A stretch of DNA of 64,000 nt from Deltaproteobacteria bacterium GWA2_38_16 (lineage in GTDB: Bacteria; Bdellovibrionota; JACOXK01; 2-02-FULL-40-11): contig MGPE01000006.1 in assembly GCA_001797335.1 (NCBI GenBank), forward strand, positions 123,326 through 187,325. Reading direction: 5' to 3'. Each line of letters begins with the position of its first letter. Position 1 is the first letter of the stretch. The notes below the pieces were generated by a model. That model was given only the letters and a program-made list of their open reading frames with translations, ran no database searches and had not been told where the DNA came from. Below are positions 11,240 to 44,648 of the stretch, piece after piece. Both the position numbers and the translations under genes were made by a program.

Positions 11240-12013
11240 ATGAGCAAAAATAACATTCCTCTTATTTTTGGAAATCCTAAAGATGCGGCCTTTTTTAATC
11301 CTACCGACTGGATTTCTTATGCCAAAGAACAAGGAAAATTTAAAAATTGGCAGCCGGTGACTTCCTGTATCCTCACATTTAATTATGATTGGTTTAATTT
11401 GCTTAAAAAATCTCTCAAACTTTACACCAAATATGATCGCCAAATTCATGTATTTAAGGTGGGATCTAAAAAAATTGCTGCCCAACATGTTTCTGTCGGT
11501 GCTGCAAAAGCTGGAATTGAATTAGAAGTTCTCGTAGCTTTGGGAATTAAAAAATTTATTGCCATCGGGTCTGCCGGTTCTCTCCAAGAACATGTTACTA
11601 CCGGAGATATTTGTCTTCCCACCAAAGCCATTCGAGATGAAGGAACTTCTTACCACTACATGTCCCCTTCTAAATATAGCTATCCCACTCTCCCTTTATT
11701 TAAAGCGCTCAAAAAAATACTCCAAAAAAAGAATTTTACTTATTTTGCGGGACCTACGTGGACAACCGATGCTCCTTATCGAGAAACCATTCGAAAAATT
11801 CTAACCTATCGAAAAGAAGGCTGCCTTACCGTAGAAATGGAAGCGGCTAGTCTTTTTGCCATTGCCAAACACAGAAAAGTTTCTCTTGTTTCGATTTTAA
11901 ATATCTCTGATGAACTCACGGGTACTCATTGGAAGCCCAATTTCCATCACAAAAAACACCAGCAATCTAAAGAAAAACTGATTGAAGCCGCCATCGAAAC
12001 CCTATCGATCTAA
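11240..12013 (+). CDS. Nucleoside phosphorylase family protein (PNP/UDP type)
   Basis: 257 residues of the PNP_UDP_1 fold. Family marks: IAIGSAGSL (phosphate/ribose site), GDICLPTKAIRDEGTSYHY, GPTWTTDAPYRE, and the VEMEAASLFAIA block whose Glu binds ribose, followed by NISDEL. It would cleave a purine or pyrimidine nucleoside with phosphate in the cytoplasm (nucleotide salvage); base specificity cannot be read. The ATG at 11240 has only a weak upstream purine stretch. Its last 45 bases plus three downstream bases are duplicated exactly at 13826-13873, on the far side of the papain cassette. Confidence 0.85.
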   Translation: MSKNNIPLIFGNPKDAAFFNPTDWISYAKEQGKFKNWQPVTSCILTFNYDWFNLLKKSLKLYTKYDRQIHVFKVGSKKIAAQHVSVGAAKAGIELEVLVALGIKKFIAIGSAGSLQEHVTTGDICLPTKAIRDEGTSYHYMSPSKYSYPTLPLFKALKKILQKKNFTYFAGPTWTTDAPYRETIRKILTYRKEGCLTVEMEAASLFAIAKHRKVSLVSILNISDELTGTHWKPNFHHKKHQQSKEKLIEAAIETLSI

Positions 12014-12016
12014 AAA
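11969..12016 (+). repeat. 48-bp direct repeat, left copy (native 3' end of nucleoside phosphorylase gene)
   Basis: This copy is the authentic 3' end of the phosphorylase gene including its TAA. It is identical over all 48 bases to 13826-13873; the sequences diverge immediately outside on both sides (T versus A on the left, G versus A on the right). Confidence 0.97.
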
Positions 12017-12018
12017 GA

Positions 12019-12450
12019 CTACTTCTTAATAATATACTCTTTCCATCGGATTAATAAATATGCCCCTTGAACATAGGAAGAATCTTTAAATACACACCGA
12101 TTAGATGCTATCCATTCCCCTTTCCATTGATAAGACATAATGTGAGGAGTACCCAAGAGAGCTTTGCATAGTTTAAAAACAGGCGTTCCATATTCAGAGT
12201 AATAGTCTTTCACAAAAATTGGTTTTTTAATCTCTTGTTTCGCTAAACAAGGTTCCTGGTAACATGATTTTGAAATAAAGAAAGATTGGTCCTGATACGA
12301 AAAAAGGCAATAAGAACTTTTTTCATATTTTTCTTTTCCCATTTTAAACCATTTTATTTTTCCATTTACACATGACGCCTCATAAGCAAGGGTATTTTGA
12401 ATCAAAAATAAAAATAAAAACATGATCATTAAAAATATTTTATTGAACAT
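12019..12450 (-). CDS. Small cysteine-rich secreted protein, partner of papain-like protease
   Basis: 143 residues starting at the ATG at 12450, chosen because it opens a proper signal peptide (MFNKIFL..., cleavage near LAYEA); the frame extends further upstream but that part is antisense-like and lies inside the protease gene. The mature chain is about 120 residues with six cysteines, suggesting disulphides in the periplasm or outside. The start overlaps the protease stop by 11 bases, implying translational coupling. No family recognised. A protease inhibitor, immunity factor or co-secreted effector is plausible from the coupling but unproven. Confidence 0.7.
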   Translation of the reverse strand: MFNKIFLMIMFLFLFLIQNTLAYEASCVNGKIKWFKMGKEKYEKSSYCLFSYQDQSFFISKSCYQEPCLAKQEIKKPIFVKDYYSEYGTPVFKLCKALLGTPHIMSYQWKGEWIASNRCVFKDSSYVQGAYLLIRWKEYIIKK

Positions 12451-13804
12451 ACGTAATCCCCTCAAGAGTCCTAGATAAAAAATCTTCAGGTACCCAAACA
12501 TATCCTCTGTCACAAGAAAAATCATAGGTACAATTTGCTCCCCATGAATTCCGAACAAGATATTCGCAAGACTGCCTATTCTCAACCCATCGCCTCCCCA
12601 CCACACTAGAAGCATGTGGTCCTTCTAACTCAAGAGCGAAGCGATTATCTAAAATATTGGCATAATAGCTAATGCCTACAATATTATTGTGATTAAGTTG
12701 ATCATCCATCTCTTTAATTAAACTGCCTGTATCTGAAAATAAGCCTTTATATTTTGCAGTGATGCTTAAATTTTCAATAGGCTCCAATCTTTTCCCTTTA
12801 CAATTTTCTTCTATTAATGTGTCCATCAACACAAAATAAGGCGTTCTATTCAAAATATCGGTAATATCCGATATACTTAAATTAGGAAGCATTCTGGCAA
12901 ACAAGGGTCCTTCACAGGCTTGAAATTCTTCTTCCTGATGTTGTTTCTTGGCTTCTTCTAGTTTTGTTTGATCCTCTTCAAGTCTTTTCAATGCTTGCTT
13001 TAATGATAAATATTCCGTAAAAGCCACATCTGAAGAAGGAAGATCTTGTTCTAAACAAAGGCCTCTTTTATTAGCTGCCTCCAAAGCATCTTCTATCCAT
13101 CCGCCTTCGATATCGGCTTCCTTGTATCCAAATAAAGATTTAAAGGCCCCTCTCATGCTTTCATCATTATATGCATTGGCCACATCCACCGCAGAGATGA
13201 GTTGTCCTGTTTTATAACTTAAAAGATCTGCTGCCGTAAAAGCATAACACCACCCAATACCATCTTGATCCCGAACCCCCATCAAAGGAAACCTTCGATT
13301 ATCTTGGTTAGAACAAGAATGTTTTCTTTGATGCGCGGCATTTCTCCCCTGTTCTTCCAGCTGAACCTGAACAGGAACAGACAGGTGATTTACTAATGGG
13401 ATAGAAGTGCTCCAAGCATCTAAAACATCTCTTAATTTTTGTATGGCCGCATAAGGTGGACGATACCTTGAACTTCTTTCGATTTCACTGGTCAGAAATG
13501 CAATTTGTTTTTTATAGAGCTCTTTAAAGTGGGCATTAACAAATAAGATTATCTTTTGCCTATCCTCAACATAGCCACCACAATGCTTATCAATATCATC
13601 CAAAAAATTTATTATGCGTGGTTTAAGTGCCACCACATCTTCAATTTCTTGTAATCTCTCCCATTGATTTTGATATTCTCTCTTTTGATTGGAATTCATG
13701 AAAGGACACCCTCTTAAATCTAGCGGGCGACTTAAGCTTTCGTAGGGCATCCAAAATAAAGTTAAAAATATAACACCAATAAAAAATTTAAAATAATATT
13801 CCAC
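12440..13804 (-). CDS. Secreted papain-like (C1) cysteine protease
   Basis: 454 residues with an N-terminal signal (about 1-25), a helical pro-region (about 40-135) and a C1-type catalytic domain: Gln180 and Cys186 in RDQDGIGWCYAF, the GGW motif (234-236), His397 in GPHASSV and Asn419 in VRNSWG, followed by GYVWVP. A charged coiled-coil insertion (about 267-297) interrupts the domain. The start is GTG at 13804 with no good ribosome-binding site. Cleavage of extracellular or envelope proteins is inferred. It forms a pair with the overlapping cysteine-rich gene, and the pair sits between 48-bp direct repeats, downstream of comM and the toxin-antitoxin genes on the same strand. Confidence 0.88.
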   Translation of the reverse strand: MEYYFKFFIGVIFLTLFWMPYESLSRPLDLRGCPFMNSNQKREYQNQWERLQEIEDVVALKPRIINFLDDIDKHCGGYVEDRQKIILFVNAHFKELYKKQIAFLTSEIERSSRYRPPYAAIQKLRDVLDAWSTSIPLVNHLSVPVQVQLEEQGRNAAHQRKHSCSNQDNRRFPLMGVRDQDGIGWCYAFTAADLLSYKTGQLISAVDVANAYNDESMRGAFKSLFGYKEADIEGGWIEDALEAANKRGLCLEQDLPSSDVAFTEYLSLKQALKRLEEDQTKLEEAKKQHQEEEFQACEGPLFARMLPNLSISDITDILNRTPYFVLMDTLIEENCKGKRLEPIENLSITAKYKGLFSDTGSLIKEMDDQLNHNNIVGISYYANILDNRFALELEGPHASSVVGRRWVENRQSCEYLVRNSWGANCTYDFSCDRGYVWVPEDFLSRTLEGITYVQ

Positions 13805-13825
13805 AGATGTCTTATCGGCATTTTA

Positions 13826-13873
13826 AAAGAAAAACTGATTGAAGCCGCCATCGAAACCCTATCGATCTAAAAA
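13826..13873 (+). repeat. 48-bp direct repeat, right copy
   Basis: Exact copy of 11969-12016. Here it is not part of a gene: it encodes the last 14 codons of the phosphorylase with no gene in front and ends five bases before the antitoxin stop. Removing 12017-13873 would restore a simple convergent junction between phosphorylase and antitoxin genes. Confidence 0.97.
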
Positions 13874-13878
13874 ACACA

Positions 13879-14175
13879 TCAGGCTACTTTTTCAAGTTCA
13901 ATCTTTATTTTTAAACGAAATGGATAAAGATAAAGGTCCAGAGTTTCTGGTTTTGGACGCCTTCGATCTTTTAAGAAATCAACAATGTTTGGAGATGGGA
14001 TACCGGATACTTCTGAGAATTCCTTTACTCCCATTCGTTGAATGGCATGCTTAAGAGCTTCTTCCACACTTAGCCCTTCTTCTCCTTCCATAAGGGTGAT
14101 AAAAAAATTCTGAGCAAATTTTGGATTTCTCATTTTTTCACTTAATCTGTGATCATAGGATTTACTTCGATTCAT
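13879..14175 (-). CDS. HigA-like antitoxin (XRE helix-turn-helix)
   Basis: 98 residues. The segment from about 40 to 85 (ALKHAIQRMGVKEFSEVSG and PNIVDFLKDRRRPKPETL) reads as a Cro/XRE-type helix-turn-helix of the addiction-module antidote family. It starts inside the toxin gene (14-base overlap) with a GGAG site, the toxin-first order typical of higBA-like modules. The protein should bind and neutralise the toxin and repress the operon. Confidence 0.85.
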   Translation of the reverse strand: MNRSKSYDHRLSEKMRNPKFAQNFFITLMEGEEGLSVEEALKHAIQRMGVKEFSEVSGIPSPNIVDFLKDRRRPKPETLDLYLYPFRLKIKIELEKVA

Positions 14176-14476
14176 ATATTCTCCAAAATTCTTTTGCCTT
14201 TTGTATATTCTTATCCTGAGAACTCTTATCTCCTCCCAAAAGAAGGATCATTTGATTTTTACTCCTTCCAAAATAAACTCGATATCCAGGACCATAATCA
14301 ATTTTAATTTCAAAAACACCATCTCCCACAGGTTTTAAATTTTTCCTACCACCCCCTAATGCAATACGATCTACATAGGCATAAATCTTTGCTTGAGTTA
14401 CAATATCCAGTGTCTCTATCCATACTGAATAAGGCTCCCTATTTTTAATATTACCAAAAATGATAATTTTAATCAA
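14162..14476 (-). CDS. HigB/RelE-family toxin (Gp49-like)
   Basis: 104 residues of the RelE/ParE superfamily, phage Gp49-like branch: GDGVFEIKIDYGPGYRVYF followed by LLLGGDKSSQDKNIQKAKEFW is the family signature. Members are ribosome-dependent mRNA nucleases. The start is TTG at 14476 with GAGGAA six bases away. Only nine bases separate it from the comM stop, so the module can be co-transcribed with comM from the sigma-54 promoter near 16022, although it may also have its own promoter inside comM. Confidence 0.9.
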   Translation of the reverse strand: MIKIIIFGNIKNREPYSVWIETLDIVTQAKIYAYVDRIALGGGRKNLKPVGDGVFEIKIDYGPGYRVYFGRSKNQMILLLGGDKSSQDKNIQKAKEFWRIYESK

Positions 14477-14485
14477 GTTTTTTCC

Positions 14486-15997
14486 TCATCTATCTAAAAA
14501 GCGAAGCTGGATGGCTTGGGCAATGTGGGGAGTTCTTATATTTTCTTCTCCTTCCATATCGGCCAACGTTCTCGATACTTTTAAAATTCGATGATAGGTC
14601 CGATAGCTCAATCCAAATTTTTCCATCGCTTCATTTAAAATTTTTTCTGCCGAAGATTCTAAGGTACAAAACTCTGCAATAGCCCTAGGAGACATGTGAC
14701 TATTGGTAAAAAAATGACACTCCTTAAATCGAGATCCTTGGATGTTTCTGGCTTTCAACACTCGTTCTAAAATATCTTTCGATGATTCTTCTAGTGATGA
14801 AGACCCCTCTTCTACAGTAACTGCCGGCACCAACACTTGAACATCAATTCTATCCATTAAAGGCCCTGACAGCTTTCCTCGATAGTGCTGGATCCGGGCA
14901 TCACTACAGATACAATCTTTTTTAGGATGATTTAAATACCCACACGGGCAAGGGTTCATCGCTGCTACCAGCATAAATCTAGCCGGATATAAAAATCGTC
15001 CATTGACCCGACATACAGAAATTTTTCCTTCTTCCATGGGTTCCCTTAAGACTTCCAGTACATCTCTTTTAAATTCGGGAATCTCATCTAAAAAAAGTAT
15101 CCCATGATGCGCAAGACTGACTTCCCCAGGCATAATAGAATTTTTTCCACCTCCTACGAGCGCCGCATAAGAAGCCGTGTGATGGGGACTTCGAAAAGGA
15201 CGCTCATAAATAAGTGATTCCTTAGGTTTTAATAACCCAGATACCGAATAGACCTGGGTTGTTTCCAAAGATTCTTTAAAAGTTAAAGGAGGTAAAATCG
15301 ATGGTAAGCGTCTAGCCAACATAGACTTTCCACATCCCGGAGGACCCATCATGAGTACATTGTGTCCTCCCGCCGCAGCAATTTCTAACGCCCGCTTAGC
15401 CCACTTTTGCCCTTTCACCTCAGAAAAATCTATTTCTGACTTCTGTGAGGAAGAAGGCTCAGAAAATTTAACGGGAGTTAAAGATATTTCTTCTTTTAAA
15501 AATTGAATAGCTTCCATCAAACTTTCAATACCATACACATTCATCTGAGAAACAACCGAAGCTTCCAGTGCGTTTTCTTTTGGTAAGAGAACGGTTTTAA
15601 TCCCTTGTTTATAGGCCGAAAGCACTAGCGGCAATACCCCTCGAATAGGCTGGAGCCTCCCTTCCAACGATAGTTCACCTAAAAAAAGATATTCTTTATA
15701 TTTTTGACAATTCCATTGTTGGTCGGCCATAAGAAGTCCTAACGCAATGGCCAATTCAAAAGAAGATCCCTCTTTTTTAAGGTGGGCAGGGGATAAATTC
15801 ACCGTAATTCGTTTCATGGGAAAAGAAACATCACTATTTTTAAATGCCGATCGAACACGCTCTTTACTTTCTTTTACCGACGTATCCGGCAACCCTACTA
15901 CACAAAAAGAGGGGAGCCCAGATTGTAAATCCACCTCTACCCTCACTAAACACGCCTTAAGCCCCACCACACACCCACTCATCACATATGAAAGCAT
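14486..15997 (-). CDS. comM: YifB/ComM family Mg-chelatase-like AAA+ ATPase
   Basis: 503 residues from the ATG at 15997. That start has a perfect AGGAGG six bases upstream and lies just downstream of a sigma-54 promoter; a longer frame opening at 16042 would begin upstream of that promoter and is rejected. Domains: N-terminal ChlI-like domain (VVGLPDTSVKES), Mg-chelatase AAA+ core with Walker A GPPGCGKS (218-225), Walker B LFLDEIPEF, and the C-terminal Mg_chelatase_C domain (SYRTYHRILKVSRTLADM). ComM is a hexameric branch-migration helicase that helps integrate single-stranded DNA during natural transformation. Sigma-54 control of comM is unusual. Confidence 0.93.
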   Translation of the reverse strand: MLSYVMSGCVVGLKACLVRVEVDLQSGLPSFCVVGLPDTSVKESKERVRSAFKNSDVSFPMKRITVNLSPAHLKKEGSSFELAIALGLLMADQQWNCQKYKEYLFLGELSLEGRLQPIRGVLPLVLSAYKQGIKTVLLPKENALEASVVSQMNVYGIESLMEAIQFLKEEISLTPVKFSEPSSSQKSEIDFSEVKGQKWAKRALEIAAAGGHNVLMMGPPGCGKSMLARRLPSILPPLTFKESLETTQVYSVSGLLKPKESLIYERPFRSPHHTASYAALVGGGKNSIMPGEVSLAHHGILFLDEIPEFKRDVLEVLREPMEEGKISVCRVNGRFLYPARFMLVAAMNPCPCGYLNHPKKDCICSDARIQHYRGKLSGPLMDRIDVQVLVPAVTVEEGSSSLEESSKDILERVLKARNIQGSRFKECHFFTNSHMSPRAIAEFCTLESSAEKILNEAMEKFGLSYRTYHRILKVSRTLADMEGEENIRTPHIAQAIQLRFLDR

Positions 15998-16021
15998 AAT
16001 AAACCTCCTGAAATCAGGATA

Positions 16022-16037
16022 TGCAAAGCGTGTGCCA
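16022..16037 (-). promoter_or_regulatory. Sigma-54 (-24/-12) promoter for comM
   Basis: Minus strand TGGCACACGCTTTGCA: GG (16036-16035), ten bases, GC (16024-16023). This is a full match to TGGCAC-N5-TTGCA. The expected start is near 16011, leaving a leader of about 14 bases with AGGAGG at 16008-16003. Confidence 0.85.
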
Positions 16038-16059
16038 GGCATTTTGAGCTTGAAATGAG

Positions 16060-22155: not shown

Positions 22156-22255
22156 GGAAGTGTAAAAGTCTCTGGTGTGCTTCCTGGACTTCAAATCCAG
22201 TGGCGGGGATAGTCACTATGTCCGCGGTGGGTTCGATTCCCATACACTTCCGCCA
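22156..22255 (+). tRNA. selC: Selenocysteine tRNA (anticodon TCA)
   Basis: 100 bases with encoded CCA. Eight-base-pair acceptor stem GGAAGTGT/ACACTTCC plus G73, T-arm GTGGG-TTCGATT-CCCAT, and anticodon arm CTGGA-CTTCAAA-TCCAG with TCA at 22191-22193. A long variable arm (GGCGGGGATAGTCACTATGTC region) and the 8+5 architecture are diagnostic of bacterial tRNA-Sec. It implies SelA, SelB and SelD elsewhere and that UGA is read as selenocysteine in some genes. I found no UGA-interrupted gene in this window. Confidence 0.95.
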
Positions 22256-38958: not shown

Positions 38959-40533
38959 TTGAGTAACAAAGATTTAATCACCTCTCATCTCACGATGGTG
39001 AACGAGGTCGGGCGAAAAATCCTCACCACCCCAAACATTGAAACTCTTTACACCGAAATCACCAACATCCTTCAACAAACCTTTAATTTTCATCACCTCT
39101 CTCTTTGGATTTATGATGTTAAAACGCAAGAAGCTATTTTAAAAGCCAAATCTGGTGTTGCCCCCTATCAAGATGAAATTGGCCAAAGACGATCTATGGA
39201 TATTGGCATTATTGGATGGTGTTTAAAAAGTGGAAAAACCATTTTGGCCAATGATGTTACTCAAGATCCTCACTACTATCACTACCCTGGTCTTCAAACA
39301 AAGTCAGAACTCTGTGCACGCATTAAAATTTATGACCAAGTCATTGGAGCGCTAAATGTGGAAAGTGATAAATTGAATGCTTTTGAGGAAAGCGATGTCA
39401 CCGTTTTAGAAACAACGGCTGATCTTTGTGCCTTAGCAATTTATCTTACCAATTTTAATAAAGAACTTGAGCATCAGGTTGAAGAAAAAACGGCTGAGCT
39501 TAGAGCTGCAAATGAAAAAATTATGCAGCAACAACAACTTTTAAAACATGAAAATAAATCTTTAAAATCTTTTATTGATCAAAAAATTCCTTCTTTAAAA
39601 ATCATTGGCTCTTCTAAGCCTTTAATGCAGCTTTTAAGTATGGTCGATAAAATTGCACCCACACAAGCCACCGTTTTAATCCAGGGAGAAAGTGGAACGG
39701 GGAAAGAACTCATTGCCCACCGCCTTCATGATATGAGCGATCGAAAAAATGCTCCCTATGTCACTATTAATTGCGGTGCCCTTCATGAAAATCTTTTAAA
39801 AAGTGAACTTTTTGGACACGAAAAAGGCTCTTTTACCGGCGCTCACGCATTAAAAATTGGCCTTGTAGAAACCGCCCATGGAGGTACGCTCTTTTTAGAT
39901 GAAATTGGAGAAATGGGAAAAGAAATGCAGGCTAAACTGCTTCGGTTTTTACAAGAGGGGGAATTTTATCGCATTGGTGGAAAAAAACCTTTAAAGGTCA
40001 ATGTCCGCGTCTTGTCTGCGACCAACAAGGATTTAGAAACAGAGGTTAAGGAAGGTCGTTTTAGAGAAGACCTTTATTATCGCTTGAATACCATTACCCT
40101 TCGAGTTCCTCCGCTTCGAAAACGCTTGGATGACATTGATCATCTTGTTGACCATTTCTTAAAATCAGATTTATGGGGAGAATCTAAAGTTAAAAAAATA
40201 TCATCAGAAGCACAAGAACTTTTAAAACAATATGACTGGCCAGGCAATATTCGAGAACTTCAAAATGTGCTTGAACGACTTAAAATTTTATCAGATGGCG
40301 ACACAATTACGGTAGAAGATATGGCAACCCACATTAAATTTTCGAATAAAGCCGCTGTTGAAACTTCTGATTATCTTTCTGTTACCGCTTTATACGAGCT
40401 TGAAAAATCTCATATTTTAAAGACTCTTGAATATTTCCAGGGAAATAAAACCAAGGCCGCCAACGCCCTAGGAATTACCATTAAAACGCTTTACAATAAA
40501 CTCAGCCGTTACGATAACGTTGTTACTCATTAA
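38959..40533 (+). CDS. Sigma-54-dependent activator with GAF sensor (GAF-AAA+-Fis)
   Basis: 524 residues from the TTG at 38959, preceded by AAGGAGG with an eight-base spacer; the frame opens further upstream but would overlap the divergent gene. GAF domain about 20-165, coiled linker about 170-205, AAA+ domain: Walker A GESGTGKE (243-250), GSFTGA (290-295, variant of GAFTGA, which contacts sigma-54), Walker B GGTLFLDEIGEM (308-319), and a Fis-type helix-turn-helix at the C-terminus (NKTKAANALGITIKTLYNKL). It has no receiver domain, so it is controlled through the GAF ligand. It is the natural candidate to activate some of the six sigma-54 elements in this window. Confidence 0.95.
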   Translation: MSNKDLITSHLTMVNEVGRKILTTPNIETLYTEITNILQQTFNFHHLSLWIYDVKTQEAILKAKSGVAPYQDEIGQRRSMDIGIIGWCLKSGKTILANDVTQDPHYYHYPGLQTKSELCARIKIYDQVIGALNVESDKLNAFEESDVTVLETTADLCALAIYLTNFNKELEHQVEEKTAELRAANEKIMQQQQLLKHENKSLKSFIDQKIPSLKIIGSSKPLMQLLSMVDKIAPTQATVLIQGESGTGKELIAHRLHDMSDRKNAPYVTINCGALHENLLKSELFGHEKGSFTGAHALKIGLVETAHGGTLFLDEIGEMGKEMQAKLLRFLQEGEFYRIGGKKPLKVNVRVLSATNKDLETEVKEGRFREDLYYRLNTITLRVPPLRKRLDDIDHLVDHFLKSDLWGESKVKKISSEAQELLKQYDWPGNIRELQNVLERLKILSDGDTITVEDMATHIKFSNKAAVETSDYLSVTALYELEKSHILKTLEYFQGNKTKAANALGITIKTLYNKLSRYDNVVTH

Positions 40534-40975
40534 CGGCATAGCCTGTGTTTTGATCCAACTTGGATTATTTCTAATCCTTTCTAAACTTCCTACTCCTGCC
40601 GATGCTCTCTTGCTTCAACTTACTTTTTCGAAAGAAACATTTACTCACATTGCTCAAACATGGGGGATAGAAGGAACCCATATTTATCTGAACCATTATT
40701 ATTTGGATATGATGTACCCTATTTTTTATTCGCTTTTTCTCTCAGGCATTCTTAAAAAATTTTCTTCCACTTCTATTATTTATCTTCCTTTTATAGCCTG
40801 TGCTTTTGACCTCATTGAAAACACCTGCCACATTCTTCTTCTTACTTCTGGAAATTTTTCTTTCTCACTTATTATTCTAGCGGCTCTTTGTGCCTGGATA
40901 AAGTGGATCATTCTTCTCATTACTCTAATTCTAGTATTTTTATTCTGGAAGAAAAGCCCATCCCCTCCATATTGA
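40520..40975 (+). CDS. Small integral membrane protein with insertion-altered C-terminus
   Basis: 151 residues, four predicted membrane helices (about 3-22, 58-75, 85-105, 113-140); NHYYLDMMYPIFYSLFLSG and CAFDLIENTCH are recognisable landmarks of an uncharacterised membrane family. It overlaps the activator gene by 14 bases, so it is coupled to it. Its last codons run through repeat copy A. Copies B and C keep the alternative ending WKKSLR-stop in the same frame, so the present tail SPSPPY probably arose when the cassette entered at 40959. Confidence 0.75.
   Translation: MLLINGIACVLIQLGLFLILSKLPTPADALLLQLTFSKETFTHIAQTWGIEGTHIYLNHYYLDMMYPIFYSLFLSGILKKFSSTSIIYLPFIACAFDLIENTCHILLLTSGNFSFSLIILAALCAWIKWIILLITLILVFLFWKKSPSPPY
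40911..40958. repeat. DUF167 3'-end repeat, copy A
   Basis: TTCTTCTCATTACTCTAATTCTAG then TATTTTTATTCTGGAAG and AAAAGCC. Read on the minus strand it spells the DUF167 C-terminus GFSSRIKILELE-stop, as in the genuine gene at 44427-44648. The similarity stops abruptly at 40958, marking the left edge of the first inserted unit. Confidence 0.85.
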
Positions 40976-41000
40976 CTTTCTATTCTTTTTCCAATATATA
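40972..41000 (+). promoter_or_regulatory. Promoter of the first exported-protein pair (possibly leaderless transcript)
   Basis: TTGACT (40972-40977), 17-base spacer, TATATA (40995-41000). The expected start is within about two bases of the ATG at 41009, and there is no ribosome-binding site, so the message may be leaderless. It lies 14 bases inside the inserted unit, next to repeat copy A. Confidence 0.6.
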
Positions 41001-41008
41001 TCCCCCGC

Positions 41009-42364
41009 ATGTTCATTCGTTTTTTAATAATTTTTGCACTCCTCTTATCTTCTCATTTTTTAAATGCCGATCGCGCCAATCACAATGATAAGATCATTTC
41101 TCTAGATCCTTCTTTGAATTCCTTTAGCAGAGATGAAGCACTTTTAGCTTCTTGGCAGGAGATGAGAGATGTTTCTGTCACACGCCCTGAAAAAATAGGT
41201 TCTGAAGAAATCCATTTATTAAGATATGCCATCAAGATTGGAAAGCATAAAAATACCCACCTTCCTCTTTATTTCTGGAAAGAAAGTTCTAAGACATTTG
41301 AGAATGGGAAGGAAAGCTCCAAAGCAGATTTTGAGCAAACACTTTCTTTAGAACAATCGCTCTCTCAAATTCCGCCTCAAGCCATCATTTATACTATATA
41401 TGATGGAGAAGAAGAGCATAAGGTCGTTTTCTTAATTCAACCAACCAAGGGACTCAACACCGTTGTTTATGGAGATAATGAAGAACCATCCAAAAATACT
41501 TTTGAATTTAAAACATCTTTGGATGCTCCTAAGATATTCTATCAAGAAAAAGTCGTACAACATATCCTTCAAGCTATTTTAAAAATGAAACCTCCAAAGG
41601 AAGACATACATTTTTCAGATCTTAAAAATGTTCAAACGGCAGAAATAGTTAGCACCTTTGAAGTAAAGCTAGGAAATAAACATAACGTCACTCCGAAAGC
41701 CCATTATGGATTTAATACCTATCAAAGAGAATCCCTTTCTATCCAAGGAAATCCAGCCATTCCTACCTTCCTAACCCATCTTAGATTGGAAGATAAAAAA
41801 GTAGAACTTGATCGCATTGTTGTTGGAGATATGGAAGCCTTAAAATCATATCTTAAAGAAAACATGAAGAAGGATAAAGCAATTGTCAGAAATGAAAAAG
41901 ATTTATTGGAGACCATAAAGGAAGATTTGAGTGCTAAAAAGATCAATAAAAAACACCAATTTTTAAAAGAAGATATAGATCGAGCAATCATTGAAGCCTC
42001 TCCAGAAGCCATTTCACAAGCAGTAGACAGTATTATTAACTACTTTGATGGAAATATGGCCTGGGACTTCATGCCTGAAAACGTAAGATCAAAAGAAGAT
42101 CTTTATGAAAACTTAAAAGATGTTATTACCACAGCTAAAAAATTACATATCCCAGATATTGTTTTATTAAATGCAGCAGAGCGAATGATCGATACTGTTT
42201 TTAATCCTCATAACTATCAATCAGTTAAAACACCAGACCATTATCTTCTGATGAAAAAAGATATTTCGCTTGGAAAATATATTGAAGGATTACCTTCTGA
42301 TATAAACGTGGAACTTTATTATGGCTATATTAATCAACAACTAATTTATTGGTTTAAAATATGA
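41009..42364 (+). CDS. Exported protein of unknown function (cassette 1, first gene)
   Basis: 451 residues with a signal peptide (1-20, SHFLNAD). The mature chain is hydrophilic, Lys/Glu-rich, mixed alpha/beta, without cysteine-rich or catalytic motifs I can identify. It overlaps the following lipoprotein gene by four bases (ATGA), so the two are made together. The pair lies between repeat copies A and B and is AT-rich with many AAA/GAA codons, compatible with recent acquisition. Confidence 0.72.
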   Translation: MFIRFLIIFALLLSSHFLNADRANHNDKIISLDPSLNSFSRDEALLASWQEMRDVSVTRPEKIGSEEIHLLRYAIKIGKHKNTHLPLYFWKESSKTFENGKESSKADFEQTLSLEQSLSQIPPQAIIYTIYDGEEEHKVVFLIQPTKGLNTVVYGDNEEPSKNTFEFKTSLDAPKIFYQEKVVQHILQAILKMKPPKEDIHFSDLKNVQTAEIVSTFEVKLGNKHNVTPKAHYGFNTYQRESLSIQGNPAIPTFLTHLRLEDKKVELDRIVVGDMEALKSYLKENMKKDKAIVRNEKDLLETIKEDLSAKKINKKHQFLKEDIDRAIIEASPEAISQAVDSIINYFDGNMAWDFMPENVRSKEDLYENLKDVITTAKKLHIPDIVLLNAAERMIDTVFNPHNYQSVKTPDHYLLMKKDISLGKYIEGLPSDINVELYYGYINQQLIYWFKI

Positions 42365-43248
42365 AAAAAATTCTTTATTCTTTAATGATTGTTTCTTTTA
42401 TTTTCCCATTAGGATGTTCTAAAAAACATAAGAGTGAACATCTTTATCCTTCTACAGGATTTTATGCTTTAAAACTTTACGCCGCTCTTAATACCATTGA
42501 TCAAAATTTTTCCCCCAATACAGCTGTGGTTTATTCCGATATTAAGCTCACTCAACTTGAAGTTCAGCATTGGTATGATCATGACAAAGGTACCCGTGAC
42601 CCTGCTTATCCTAAAAGAGATACCTGGGGACATTCTTATGTGGTTGAAGTCACCGGACAAAGTATTAAGGAAAAATTATCTGTGGCTGCATTGCCAATAG
42701 AATTTGATTATGGCCATGATTATCCTCTTCGCGATGGCGCACAAAAAATAAGTTTAAAAAGATTATCTTTACTGAACTCTGCAAATGTTTATTCATTGGT
42801 CTCGCCCCACTTAAATCCCATGCCCGCCCCTATTCAAGATCATGCTTTTTTCACGATCGCTACAGGAAGTCTTCCTCAACTTAACTCTACACTTACCAAT
42901 GGAGTGGCTTATCCCTTTAGTATCGGAATAACATCTCCACAAACAGCTCCACTTGTTTTAGCCTATTATCCCTTAGGTGCATTTGAAGGATATATACCCT
43001 CTTATGCTGTAAATAATCAGAGTAATGCTGATAGCCGTATTTCCAAACACGTTAACAATGTTCCTGTTTTATTTACAGATACCAGCGCTCGAATTAAAAT
43101 ATATGGAAGCTACACACCTTCTATTGATAAAGTAACAGGATTTATTGAACACGATTATTATCAATACGGAACATTTTCAATTCAAGATGTACAAAAACCT
43201 GAAAGCATTTTGCAATTTGAGATTTTTGGTACACCCATTCACAAATAA
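42361..43248 (+). CDS. Lipoprotein of unknown function (cassette 1, second gene)
   Basis: 295 residues with a lipoprotein signal (lipobox PLGC, Cys19). The mature part is predicted beta-rich (VVYSDIKLTQLEVQHWY, YVVEVTGQSIKEKLS, AHISLKRL-like strands) and looks like a surface or periplasmic beta-sandwich. Translational coupling with the preceding 451-residue exported protein suggests a complex or an effector/immunity-type relation, but nothing in the sequence proves either. Confidence 0.75.
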   Translation: MKKILYSLMIVSFIFPLGCSKKHKSEHLYPSTGFYALKLYAALNTIDQNFSPNTAVVYSDIKLTQLEVQHWYDHDKGTRDPAYPKRDTWGHSYVVEVTGQSIKEKLSVAALPIEFDYGHDYPLRDGAQKISLKRLSLLNSANVYSLVSPHLNPMPAPIQDHAFFTIATGSLPQLNSTLTNGVAYPFSIGITSPQTAPLVLAYYPLGAFEGYIPSYAVNNQSNADSRISKHVNNVPVLFTDTSARIKIYGSYTPSIDKVTGFIEHDYYQYGTFSIQDVQKPESILQFEIFGTPIHK

Positions 43249-43262
43249 ACCACTTTTATTAA

Positions 43263-43359
43263 TTCTTCTTACCTCTCTTACTCTAATTCTACTATTTTTA
43301 TTCTGGAAGAAAAGCCTGAGATAATTTGAATATGGGATAAAATCGATATTTATTTCTTT
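43263..43359. repeat. DUF167-locus repeat, copy B (internally deleted relic)
   Basis: 43263-43337 matches copy C (44416-44490): TATTTTTATTCTGGAAGAAA, AGCCTGAGATAATTTGAATA and TGGGAT are identical. It is then joined to AAAATCGATATTTATTTCTT (43339-43358), which matches 44695-44714 upstream of the real DUF167 gene. Copy B is therefore a second DUF167 locus lacking about 205 internal bases. Confidence 0.85.
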
Positions 43360-43373
43360 TCTACTTTTTCTCT

Positions 43374-43402
43374 TTGCTTTCATTCCTGTATCTTTATATA
43401 AT
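43374..43402 (+). promoter_or_regulatory. Promoter of the second exported-protein pair
   Basis: TTGCTT (43374-43379), 17-base spacer, perfect TATAAT (43397-43402). It lies 15 bases to the right of repeat copy B and about 210 bases before the start codon at 43613. Confidence 0.65.
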
Positions 43403-43612
43403 AAATCTTTTCTGCGTTATTGATAAAGAAATCGGCAAAATAGCTGAAAAATCCCCAAAAGAAACTTAAAATATTCCCCCTATACTTTCACCATGGAAGA
43501 AAAGTCCGAAAAATTACCCTTGCAAAAGAAAAGTTGTCAGGTAAAACATCTCTAAAATTAAAGGAAATAAATCCTTTGATGATTTTGATGATTAAGATAG
43601 GGAGGTGTTAGC

Positions 43613-43966
43613 ATGTTTAAGCAAGTTATATTGTCAATAGTTGGTTTATTGATGTTTGGATCAAATGCCTTTGCATTACAGTGGATGAACTGTTCTAATG
43701 CAGATGGCTCTCTTAAAAGAGTAGAAACGGAAGTATGGGGCGCAAATCCTGTGGAATGGCTTTCTAATGGCGAAACGGTTGTAAATGCTGAAGAGGAATT
43801 TAATGATGCCAAAAAAGTTGTTCTTGAAAAAATAGACCGAACAAAAGTTTCTGTAGATGAAGTATTTGCAACACAAGTAACTGTTAGTACTACCGTTGGA
43901 AATGCAGAATTCAGAGTCACAGATTTTGTAATTTGCAAATCACATCGAGACAACAGGAAAGATTAA
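43613..43966 (+). CDS. Small secreted protein (cassette 2, first gene)
   Basis: 117 residues with a signal peptide (1-21, NAFALQ). The mature part of about 95 residues has two cysteines (Cys27 and Cys108) that could form one disulphide, and a VTVSTTVGNAEFRVTDFVICK beta region at the end. GGGAGG lies seven bases before ATG. Its stop and the next start overlap as TAATG. No family recognised. Confidence 0.7.
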   Translation: MFKQVILSIVGLLMFGSNAFALQWMNCSNADGSLKRVETEVWGANPVEWLSNGETVVNAEEEFNDAKKVVLEKIDRTKVSVDEVFATQVTVSTTVGNAEFRVTDFVICKSHRDNRKD

Positions 43967-44412
43967 TGAAAAAAATTAACTTAATCCTAATAATTTTTGG
44001 TGTATTTATTACCTTCACGGCTTTAGCCCAGGAAGATATTTTCCAAGAAATCGCTGACAACGCCCCTGTGGGCAATGGATGGGCATCGGTCGAGAACTAT
44101 GACCTAAATACTAAAAAATCAGACTTAGTTGTACAAGCTCTAGCCGAACTTAAAGAGGAATATTGGGAGAATTGCGGTCCTTGGAAAACTTTTAGAGGCC
44201 CTCGTACTTCTATTAGAAAAATTAAAAAACTTGAAGCAGATCAAGGCATAGAAGTTTCTGCTAGAAGACTTCAGAGTCTTTATGATCAGAAAAAAATCGT
44301 TGCACTAGTAGGCACAGAATCCAATAACAGAGTAGAATGCAGTCTACATTGGTTTAACATCTATGGAACAGATGGAAGTGTCTTAAGGCTACGATATAAT
44401 TTGGGCGATTAA
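43966..44412 (+). CDS. Small secreted protein (cassette 2, second gene)
   Basis: 148 residues from the ATG at 43966, chosen because it opens a good signal peptide (MKKINLILIIFG..., cleavage near ALAQ) and overlaps the previous stop by one base. The mature chain is helical in the middle (RTSIRKIKKLEADQGIEVSA) and ends in beta strands (VECSLHWFNIYG, SVLRLRYNLG), with two cysteines. It ends four bases before repeat copy C. Co-translation with the 117-residue protein suggests they work together; function unknown. Confidence 0.7.
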   Translation: MKKINLILIIFGVFITFTALAQEDIFQEIADNAPVGNGWASVENYDLNTKKSDLVVQALAELKEEYWENCGPWKTFRGPRTSIRKIKKLEADQGIEVSARRLQSLYDQKKIVALVGTESNNRVECSLHWFNIYGTDGSVLRLRYNLGD

Positions 44413-44415
44413 ACT

Positions 44416-44490
44416 TTCTTCTCACTCTAATTCTCTAATTCTAATATTTTTATTCTGGAAGAAAAGCCTGAGATAATTTGAATATGGGAT
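44416..44490. repeat. DUF167 3'-end repeat, copy C (native)
   Basis: This copy is the genuine 3' end of the DUF167 gene plus flanking bases. It shares about 40 bases with copy A and about 65 with copy B. A small internal duplication of CTCTAATT is seen only here. Confidence 0.85.
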
Positions 44491-44648
44491 TTGGCAATTT
44501 TAAAATGCTTTGAAAGAAGCAAAATCAACGCTTCATTGGCCTTTCCTTCTTGTGCAGGCGCATGCACCCACACTTCATATTCCCCTGAAGAAATCTGAAC
44601 CACTTTTTCCTGCTTTGAATTAGGTTTTATTTTAACTCGAATTTTCAT
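44427..44648 (-). CDS. yggU: DUF167 (YggU) family protein
   Basis: 73 residues covering the whole DUF167 fold: VKIKPNSKQEKV at the start, VWVHAPAQEGKANEALILLL (the family hallmark P-A-x-x-G-K-A-N) and KSHIQIISGFSSRIKILEL. Function unknown; members are small cytoplasmic alpha/beta proteins often near yggS, as here (yggS lies about 0.9 kb away). The last 12 codons are duplicated in copies A and B. Confidence 0.92.
   Translation of the reverse strand: MKIRVKIKPNSKQEKVVQISSGEYEVWVHAPAQEGKANEALILLLSKHFKIAKSHIQIISGFSSRIKILELEN

What the first reader, a model, noticed from the sequence alone, without database searches (positions are those of the whole stretch)
11969..13873. Perfect 48-bp direct repeat borders a papain-protease cassette at the 3' end of a housekeeping gene
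11969-12016 and 13826-13873 are identical over 48 bases and diverge sharply outside. The left copy is the native 3' end of the phosphorylase gene; the right copy is an orphan next to the antitoxin stop. Deleting one repeat plus the 1.86 kb between restores a simple convergent junction. Attachment-site duplication at gene 3' ends is typical of integrative elements, but there is no integrase here and the cargo is just two secreted-protein genes. Perfect identity implies recent entry.
Basis: partly seen in the sequence, partly recalled or inferred. Interest (0 to 1): 0.75.

Follow-up and report, generated by a model that had tools for sequence, protein, structure and literature searches.

The report
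Integrase-less cassettes splitting convergent gene pairs
A two-gene package (a secreted papain-like protease and a small partner) has been inserted where two bacterial genes meet end to end, and a 48-base piece of that junction was copied so both genes stayed intact; the same genome shows this at three further junctions without any dedicated integration enzyme, so the finding points to a recurrent, poorly understood way of acquiring genes.

Summary
In detail: 11969-12016 and 13826-13873 are identical over 48 bp and are the only two copies in the genome. Three same-family genomes have the empty site: phosphorylase directly convergent with comM, stops adjacent or overlapping (12 bp in two of them). 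So the papain cassette, and a toxin-antitoxin pair next to it, are insertions. It is not a one-off. In 711 kb scanned of this 2.0 Mb genome, every other non-paralogous, non-tandem exact direct repeat of 35 bp or more is the same thing: target duplications at gene151/yggU (two insertions, also in the window), sucD, and P-type ATPase/MgtE (two insertions; overlapping empty site in relatives). All four are tight convergent junctions. Repeats differ between sites and share no significant core, dif match or hairpin. The only tyrosine recombinases are XerC and XerD. Cargo is secreted proteases, small secreted or unknown proteins, and toxin-antitoxin pairs. Best reading: integrase-less insertion with a long (about 40-60 bp) target duplication, tolerated at convergent junctions because both 3' ends survive. 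Nearest precedent: "insertion with long target duplication" of restriction-modification genes in Helicobacter pylori. The enzymology is inferred. Homology-facilitated illegitimate recombination is the main rival; a classical integrase att site is not supported.

The parts
11240..12013 (+). Nucleoside phosphorylase-superfamily gene (PF01048), host gene of the insertion; 3' end intact
   Evidence: PF01048 E 1e-32; orthologs 74% identical in G001, G004, G005
11969..12016 (+). Left 48-bp copy of the duplicated target = native 3' end of the phosphorylase; its end also held the ancestral 3' end of comM
12019..12450 (-). Cargo gene 2: secreted small Cys-rich protein (143 aa), overlaps the protease gene; conserved partner of this protease family
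   Evidence: model pLDDT 85; no PDB fold match
12440..13804 (-). Cargo gene 1: secreted papain-like (C1) cysteine protease, 454 aa; Q180, C186, H397, N419 invariant
13826..13873 (+). Right 48-bp copy: orphan 3' end of the phosphorylase
13879..14175 (-). Putative antitoxin (98 aa; no family match, named by position next to the toxin), second and older insertion at the same junction
14162..14476 (-). RelE/ParE-type toxin (Gp49, PF05973; TIGR02683)
14486..16042 (-). comM/yifB, ancestral convergent partner of the phosphorylase; its end keeps ATCTAAAAAGCG as in the empty site
40520..40975 (+). gene151 (membrane protein), ancestral convergent partner of yggU; its 3' end carries target copy 1 and its last codons were replaced by inserted sequence (KKS-LR* became KKS-PSPPY*)
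40920..40958 (+). Target copy 1 of the gene151/yggU junction (38/39 identical to copy 2)
41009..43248 (+). Cargo between copies 1 and 2: 451-aa and 295-aa genes with secretion-signal-like N-termini, no Pfam match
43278..43338 (+). Target copy 2 (middle; keeps both ancestral overlapping 3' ends)
43613..44412 (+). Cargo between copies 2 and 3: two small genes (117 and 159 aa) with secretion-signal-like N-termini, no Pfam match
44445..44490 (-). Target copy 3 = native 3' end of yggU (46 bp identical to copy 2)
44427..44648 (-). yggU / DUF167 gene, host gene of the second array in the window
   Evidence: PF02594

Best explanation
The 48-bp repeat is a long target duplication left by insertion of a 1.8-kb, two-gene cassette (papain-like protease plus its small partner) at the tight convergent junction between a phosphorylase gene and comM, next to an earlier insertion of a toxin-antitoxin pair. 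It is one of at least six such insertions at four junctions found in a third of the genome. Proposed working: a foreign or relocated DNA fragment is captured at a chromosomal break whose two strands are interrupted about 40-60 nt apart; joining and gap filling duplicate the stretch between the nicks. At an overlapping or abutting convergent gene pair such a duplication gives each gene its own complete 3' end and breaks no promoter, so these are the insertions that survive. Direct repeats then let further cassettes accumulate or be lost by recombination. Shown here: empty sites at two junctions (phosphorylase/comM, ATPase/MgtE), the duplications, recurrence, absence of an integrase in the insert, absence of a shared site sequence. 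Inferred: staggered break, fill-in, the joining enzyme, and mobility.
For: Empty site phosphorylase/comM in G001, G004, G005. Empty, overlapping ATPase/MgtE in G001 and G002, split in G000 by a subtilase gene and a toxin-antitoxin pair with 39-45 bp duplications. sucD is followed directly by ndk in relatives but by a cassette and an orphan 3' end in G000. gene151/yggU split twice. Gene 3'-end copies downstream (score >=22): 8 of 632 genes, of which about 5 are clear target duplications, against 0-1 for mid-gene, inverted and 5'-end-downstream controls. 4 of 4 sites are convergent while 84 of 540 adjacent pairs are, P about 6e-4. Recent copies are identical (48/48, 39/39, 45/45, 46/46). No shared core, dif match or hairpin. 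Only XerD and a XerC-like tyrosine recombinase.
Against: In sucD both differences between the copies are synonymous, and over G000 5 of 7 differences are (expected 23%, P about 0.009), which hints at two functional alleles rather than a duplication that later decayed neutrally. No enzyme known to make 40-60 nt staggered cuts was identified. Two large serine recombinases and one small resolvase exist in the genome, and a trans role was not excluded. Only 36% of the genome was scanned, and no second strain of the species is available.
Confidence: 0.55

Rival explanations
1. Homology-facilitated illegitimate recombination: incoming donor DNA carrying the host gene's 3' end followed by the cargo recombines homologously in the gene, and its other end joins illegitimately just upstream of the resident stop, so the resident 3' end becomes the orphan.
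For: Differences between native and orphan copies lean synonymous (sucD 2/0; G000 5 of 7; a related pattern in G011 13 of 18). The same model has been proposed for orphan arrays of Vibrio type VI effector genes (PMC5361080). A comM homologue, a gene linked to natural transformation in other bacteria (own knowledge), is present and intact.
Against: Four of six events have perfectly identical copies, and repeat lengths sit in a narrow 39-66 bp range, whereas illegitimate joints should scatter over hundreds of bases. No donor arrangement (host gene followed by the same cargo without a duplication) was found: the three empty-site relatives have no match to the papain.
Confidence: 0.27
2. Remnant or satellite of integrase-driven elements (gene-3'-end islands, CIME-like): the repeats are attL/attR, and the integrase was lost or acts in trans.
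For: Integrases often target gene 3' ends and leave direct repeats of this size; arrays of units at one 3' end resemble accretion; two large serine recombinases exist in the genome.
Against: Four sites with four unrelated repeat sequences and no common core; no tyrosine integrase besides XerC/XerD; inserts hold only one or two short genes with no relaxase or integrase remnant; papain modules elsewhere lack flanking repeats; papain homologs absent from phages and viral contigs.
Confidence: 0.1
3. Tandem duplication of the gene end by slippage, followed by independent insertion between the copies.
For: The second papain module in this genome lies behind tRNA-Leu, whose 3' end is tandemly duplicated over about 18 bp with nothing between the copies.
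Against: Requires two independent events at each of four sites, always in this order and always at convergent junctions.
Confidence: 0.04
4. Assembly artefact.
For: The genome is a draft in 19 contigs.
Against: Completeness 100, contamination 0.12; six events with different cargo at four sites; empty sites in independent assemblies.
Confidence: 0.02

Closest known systems
Insertion with long target duplication (Nobusato, Uchiyama, Ohashi, Kobayashi, Gene 2000, known here through PMC3031569 and PMC1643837)
   Same: Gene insertion without transposase or integrase, flanked by long direct repeats that are single-copy at the empty site; mechanism unknown
   Different: There tied mostly to restriction-modification genes in H. 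pylori, with long and variable duplications; here about 40-60 bp, at tight convergent gene junctions, with proteases, small secreted or unknown proteins and toxin-antitoxin pairs, in a distant uncultured lineage
Homology-facilitated illegitimate recombination arrays (Vibrio T6SS effector-immunity modules, PMC5361080; Rhs C-terminal displacement)
   Same: Orphan gene 3' ends accumulate downstream of a host gene as new cargo arrives
   Different: There the cargo replaces the variable end of the host gene; here the host gene product is unchanged and the cargo is unrelated and mostly convergent
CIMEs and integrative elements at gene 3' ends
   Same: Host gene 3' end restored, direct repeats at both borders, accretion of units
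   Different: No integrase, no common att sequence, very small cargo, several unrelated target genes
Parabacteroides distasonis dipeptidyl aminopeptidase / cathepsin-like C1 proteases (cargo)
   Same: Predicted C1 papain fold with Gln, Cys, His and Asn of the active site
   Different: About 13% identity, a long helical N-terminal region, and an obligate-looking small Cys-rich partner gene with no known fold match

Membership tests
Insertion with long target duplication | Insert absent and target single-copy in relatives | tested here: met
   phosphorylase/comM and ATPase/MgtE; sister genera, not strains
Insertion with long target duplication | Flanking direct repeats consist of target sequence and exceed transposon target duplications | tested here: met
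   39-66 bp at four junctions
Insertion with long target duplication | No transposase or integrase in the insert | tested here: met
   cargo ORFs and Pfam/NCBIfam scans
Insertion with long target duplication | Restriction-modification cargo (usual in H. pylori, not strictly defining) | tested here: not met
   proteases, small secreted or unknown proteins, Gp49 toxin-antitoxin
Integrative element / genomic island with att duplication | Integrase gene in the element | tested here: not met
   none in the inserts; genome has only XerC/XerD tyrosine recombinases
Integrative element / genomic island with att duplication | A site sequence shared between insertions made by one integrase | tested here: not met
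   longest shared 11-mer, between ATPase and the G006 pyk repeat, P about 0.045
CIME (cis-mobilizable remnant) | Related complete element at the same site in relatives | tested here: inconclusive
   the three relatives examined at the phosphorylase site are simply empty; no closer genomes available
Integron gene cassette / XerCD (dif) module | attC hairpin with IntI, or dif-like site at the borders | tested here: not met
   no hairpin excess, dif matches at most 17 of 28; no integron integrase over cut-off
Transposon or insertion sequence | Terminal inverted repeats and a short fixed target duplication | tested here: not met
   no inverted repeat pair at the cassette ends; duplication 48 bp
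Homology-facilitated illegitimate recombination product | Donor allele on the anchored side differing from the resident orphan copy | tested here: inconclusive
   identical at four events, mostly synonymous differences elsewhere
C1 papain-like protease (cargo) | Catalytic Cys-His-Asn with oxyanion Gln in a papain fold | tested here: met
   invariant Q180, C186, H397, N419; Foldseek hits to C1 proteases

The most novel reading that the evidence does not exclude
This lineage has a dedicated but unrecognised gene-capture process, with no element-borne integrase and no fixed site, that opens DNA with a stagger of about 40-60 nt and preferentially fills tight convergent gene junctions with one- or two-gene cassettes of secreted proteases, small secreted proteins and toxin-antitoxin pairs, building arrays over time.
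Probability: 0.2. Interest if true: 0.85.

Novelty: new variant of a known kind. Interest (0 to 1): 0.6.

Why it matters
How small non-mobile genes such as secreted enzymes and toxin-antitoxin pairs enter genomes without transposons or integrases is an open question. This genome offers at least six insertion events of apparently different ages at four junctions, two of them with empty sites in relatives, and a simple rule (duplication across a convergent junction keeps both genes whole) that explains where such insertions persist. The orphan gene-end signature can be searched automatically in any genome, so the frequency, length distribution and enzymology of this route become directly testable.

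Tried and rejected
Shared att core among the repeats: best shared 11-mer not significant. Hairpin (attC-like) and dif similarity: none. Flanking repeats around 14 other papain modules in the phylum and around the second module in this genome: none of 14 bp or more within 700 bp, so the module is not itself a repeat-bounded element. Papain in phages and viral contigs: none; plasmids: one weak hit. Pfam and NCBIfam do not name the papain or its partner. The small partner has no convincing PDB fold match, so a protease-inhibitor role was not claimed. Other direct repeats in G000 were set aside as paralogous genes (C6:82020/83882), tandem repeats within a gene (C6:115858) or REP-like elements (C6:282799, C2:209915). 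The Dps-like candidate (score 18) was kept only as an uncertain older case.

Full report
Observation. The two 48-bp copies at 11969-12016 and 13826-13873 are identical and end sharply. A whole-genome search allowing three mismatches finds no third copy. The left copy is the 3' end of a PF01048 gene. The space between holds two overlapping genes on the minus strand: a 454-aa secreted protein with the active-site residues of papain-like proteases, and a 143-aa secreted Cys-rich protein.

Empty site. In three genomes of the same family (G001, G004, G005) the phosphorylase ortholog (74% identity) is directly convergent with comM/yifB, with stops adjacent or overlapping by up to 12 bp. The G005 junction reads ...TTATCGATCTAAAAAACGAAGC; the window repeat ends ...CTATCGATCTAAAAA, and the present comM end reads ...ATCTAAAAAGCGAAGC. 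So the repeat carries the old comM end as well as the phosphorylase end. Two insertions sit at this junction: the papain cassette (48-bp duplication, perfect) and, on the comM side, a Gp49-type toxin with a putative antitoxin (duplication now only about 9-12 bp, the rest eroded or never there). The family relatives searched have no match to the papain. Relatives in the database are titled Deltaproteobacteria MAGs from groundwater.

Not a single case. An unbiased list of exact direct repeats of 20 bp or more in contig C6 (313 kb) shows the same structure at two further places. At yggU (DUF167) three copies of one junction separate two cargo blocks; this array lies in the window at 40920-44490. 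Reading the copies in the other frame shows that the middle copy still encodes the last residues of the convergent gene151 (FLFWKKSLR*), whereas gene151 itself now ends FLFWKKSPSPPY*, so gene151 and yggU once overlapped (inference; no empty site in a relative was found for this pair). At sucD the orphan copy lies about 1 kb downstream, 7-9 bp from a convergent gene; sucD is followed directly by ndk in five relatives. In contig C2 (239 kb scanned) three copies of one 39-45 bp sequence separate a subtilase-family gene and a Gp49/HTH toxin-antitoxin pair; the sequence is the overlap of a P-type ATPase and MgtE, and in G001 and G002 these two genes are convergent with stops overlapping by 17-21 bp. 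Contig C1 (159 kb) has none. Gene 3' ends have strong copies downstream in 8 of 632 genes, about five of them clear cases; mid-gene and inverted controls give none, and hits in the other controls include paralogous genes. A pyruvate kinase 3' end with a HEPN/nucleotidyltransferase pair in G006 looks the same.

What the duplication does. All four G000 sites are tight convergent pairs, against 84 of 540 adjacent pairs (P about 6e-4). A duplication across such a junction leaves both genes with a complete 3' end and touches no promoter. This explains the location by survival rather than by site recognition, and it fits the lack of any shared sequence: the longest common word between repeats is an 11-mer (P about 0.045 against random gene ends), hairpins are not in excess and dif similarity is poor.

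Which machinery. The genome has two tyrosine recombinases, XerD (above the NCBIfam cut-off) and a XerC-like protein just under it. It has two large serine recombinases and one small resolvase; large serine integrases normally leave only a few bases of identity between attL and attR (established knowledge), so they are poor candidates but were not excluded in trans. Target duplication by a staggered break predicts identical copies, and four of six events are identical. Recombination with a donor predicts allelic, mostly synonymous differences: sucD has two, both synonymous, and over G000 5 of 7 are (P about 0.009). Both can operate. The narrow length range (39-66 bp) and perfect identity of recent copies favour target duplication; the synonymous bias keeps the donor model alive. 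A G011 lipoprotein gene with a diverged orphan end (13 of 18 differences synonymous) looks more like an old allele or paralog remnant.

The cargo. Papain plus small partner occur as overlapping neighbours in nearly all of 16 examined loci across the phylum and again in this genome behind tRNA-Leu. Protease homologs are found in 194 of 368 genomes of the phylum. Q180, C186, H397 and N419 are invariant; profile and fold searches point to C1 proteases (model pLDDT 85). The partner has six invariant cysteines, a confident model and no known fold match. An inhibitor or chaperone role is a guess. None of the other modules tested is bounded by direct repeats, so the module is cargo, not a self-contained mobile element.

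Literature. Insertion with long target duplication was described for restriction-modification genes in H. pylori (Nobusato et al. 2000, as cited in PMC3031569 and PMC1643837); the original paper was not held and was not read. Homology-facilitated illegitimate recombination was proposed for arrays of orphan 3' ends in Vibrio (PMC5361080). The present case differs in cargo, lineage, duplication length and the convergent-junction rule.

Limits. 36% of the genome was scanned; no conspecific strain and no reads are available; the relatives are sister genera. The insertion mechanism itself is inference.

Noticed in passing
L035:6510-6620 (G000:C6 about 202510-202620): tRNA-Leu(CAG) 3' end is followed at once by an 18-bp tandem copy of itself and then by the second papain module; the site has different downstream genes in G001 and G005 and no duplication there.
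   Followed up: partly
L021:1501-1623 (G002:C54): In G002 an orphan 3' end of the phosphorylase (38 codons) lies downstream of comM in the same orientation, with no full-length ortholog found in that genome.
   Followed up: partly
G006:C21:54531, 54739, 59532: Three copies of a tRNA-Leu 3' end 208 bp and 5 kb apart, bordering a methyltransferase- and nuclease-like gene set: looks like a tRNA island.
   Followed up: no
G011:C1:228206 and 231265-232119: Diverged orphan 3' end of a lipoprotein gene about 3 kb from the gene, 13 of 18 differences synonymous.
   Followed up: partly
window 22156-22255: Selenocysteine tRNA predicted by ARAGORN.
   Followed up: no
G000:C8 about 178 kb, G000:C10 about 24 and 27 kb (L336, L337, L333): Two large serine recombinases and one small resolvase; their insertion sites were not examined.
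   Followed up: no
G000:C6:195682-196158 and about 197392: Dps-like gene with a short (about 24 bp) diverged orphan 3' end 1.2 kb downstream, possibly an older event of the same kind.
   Followed up: partly
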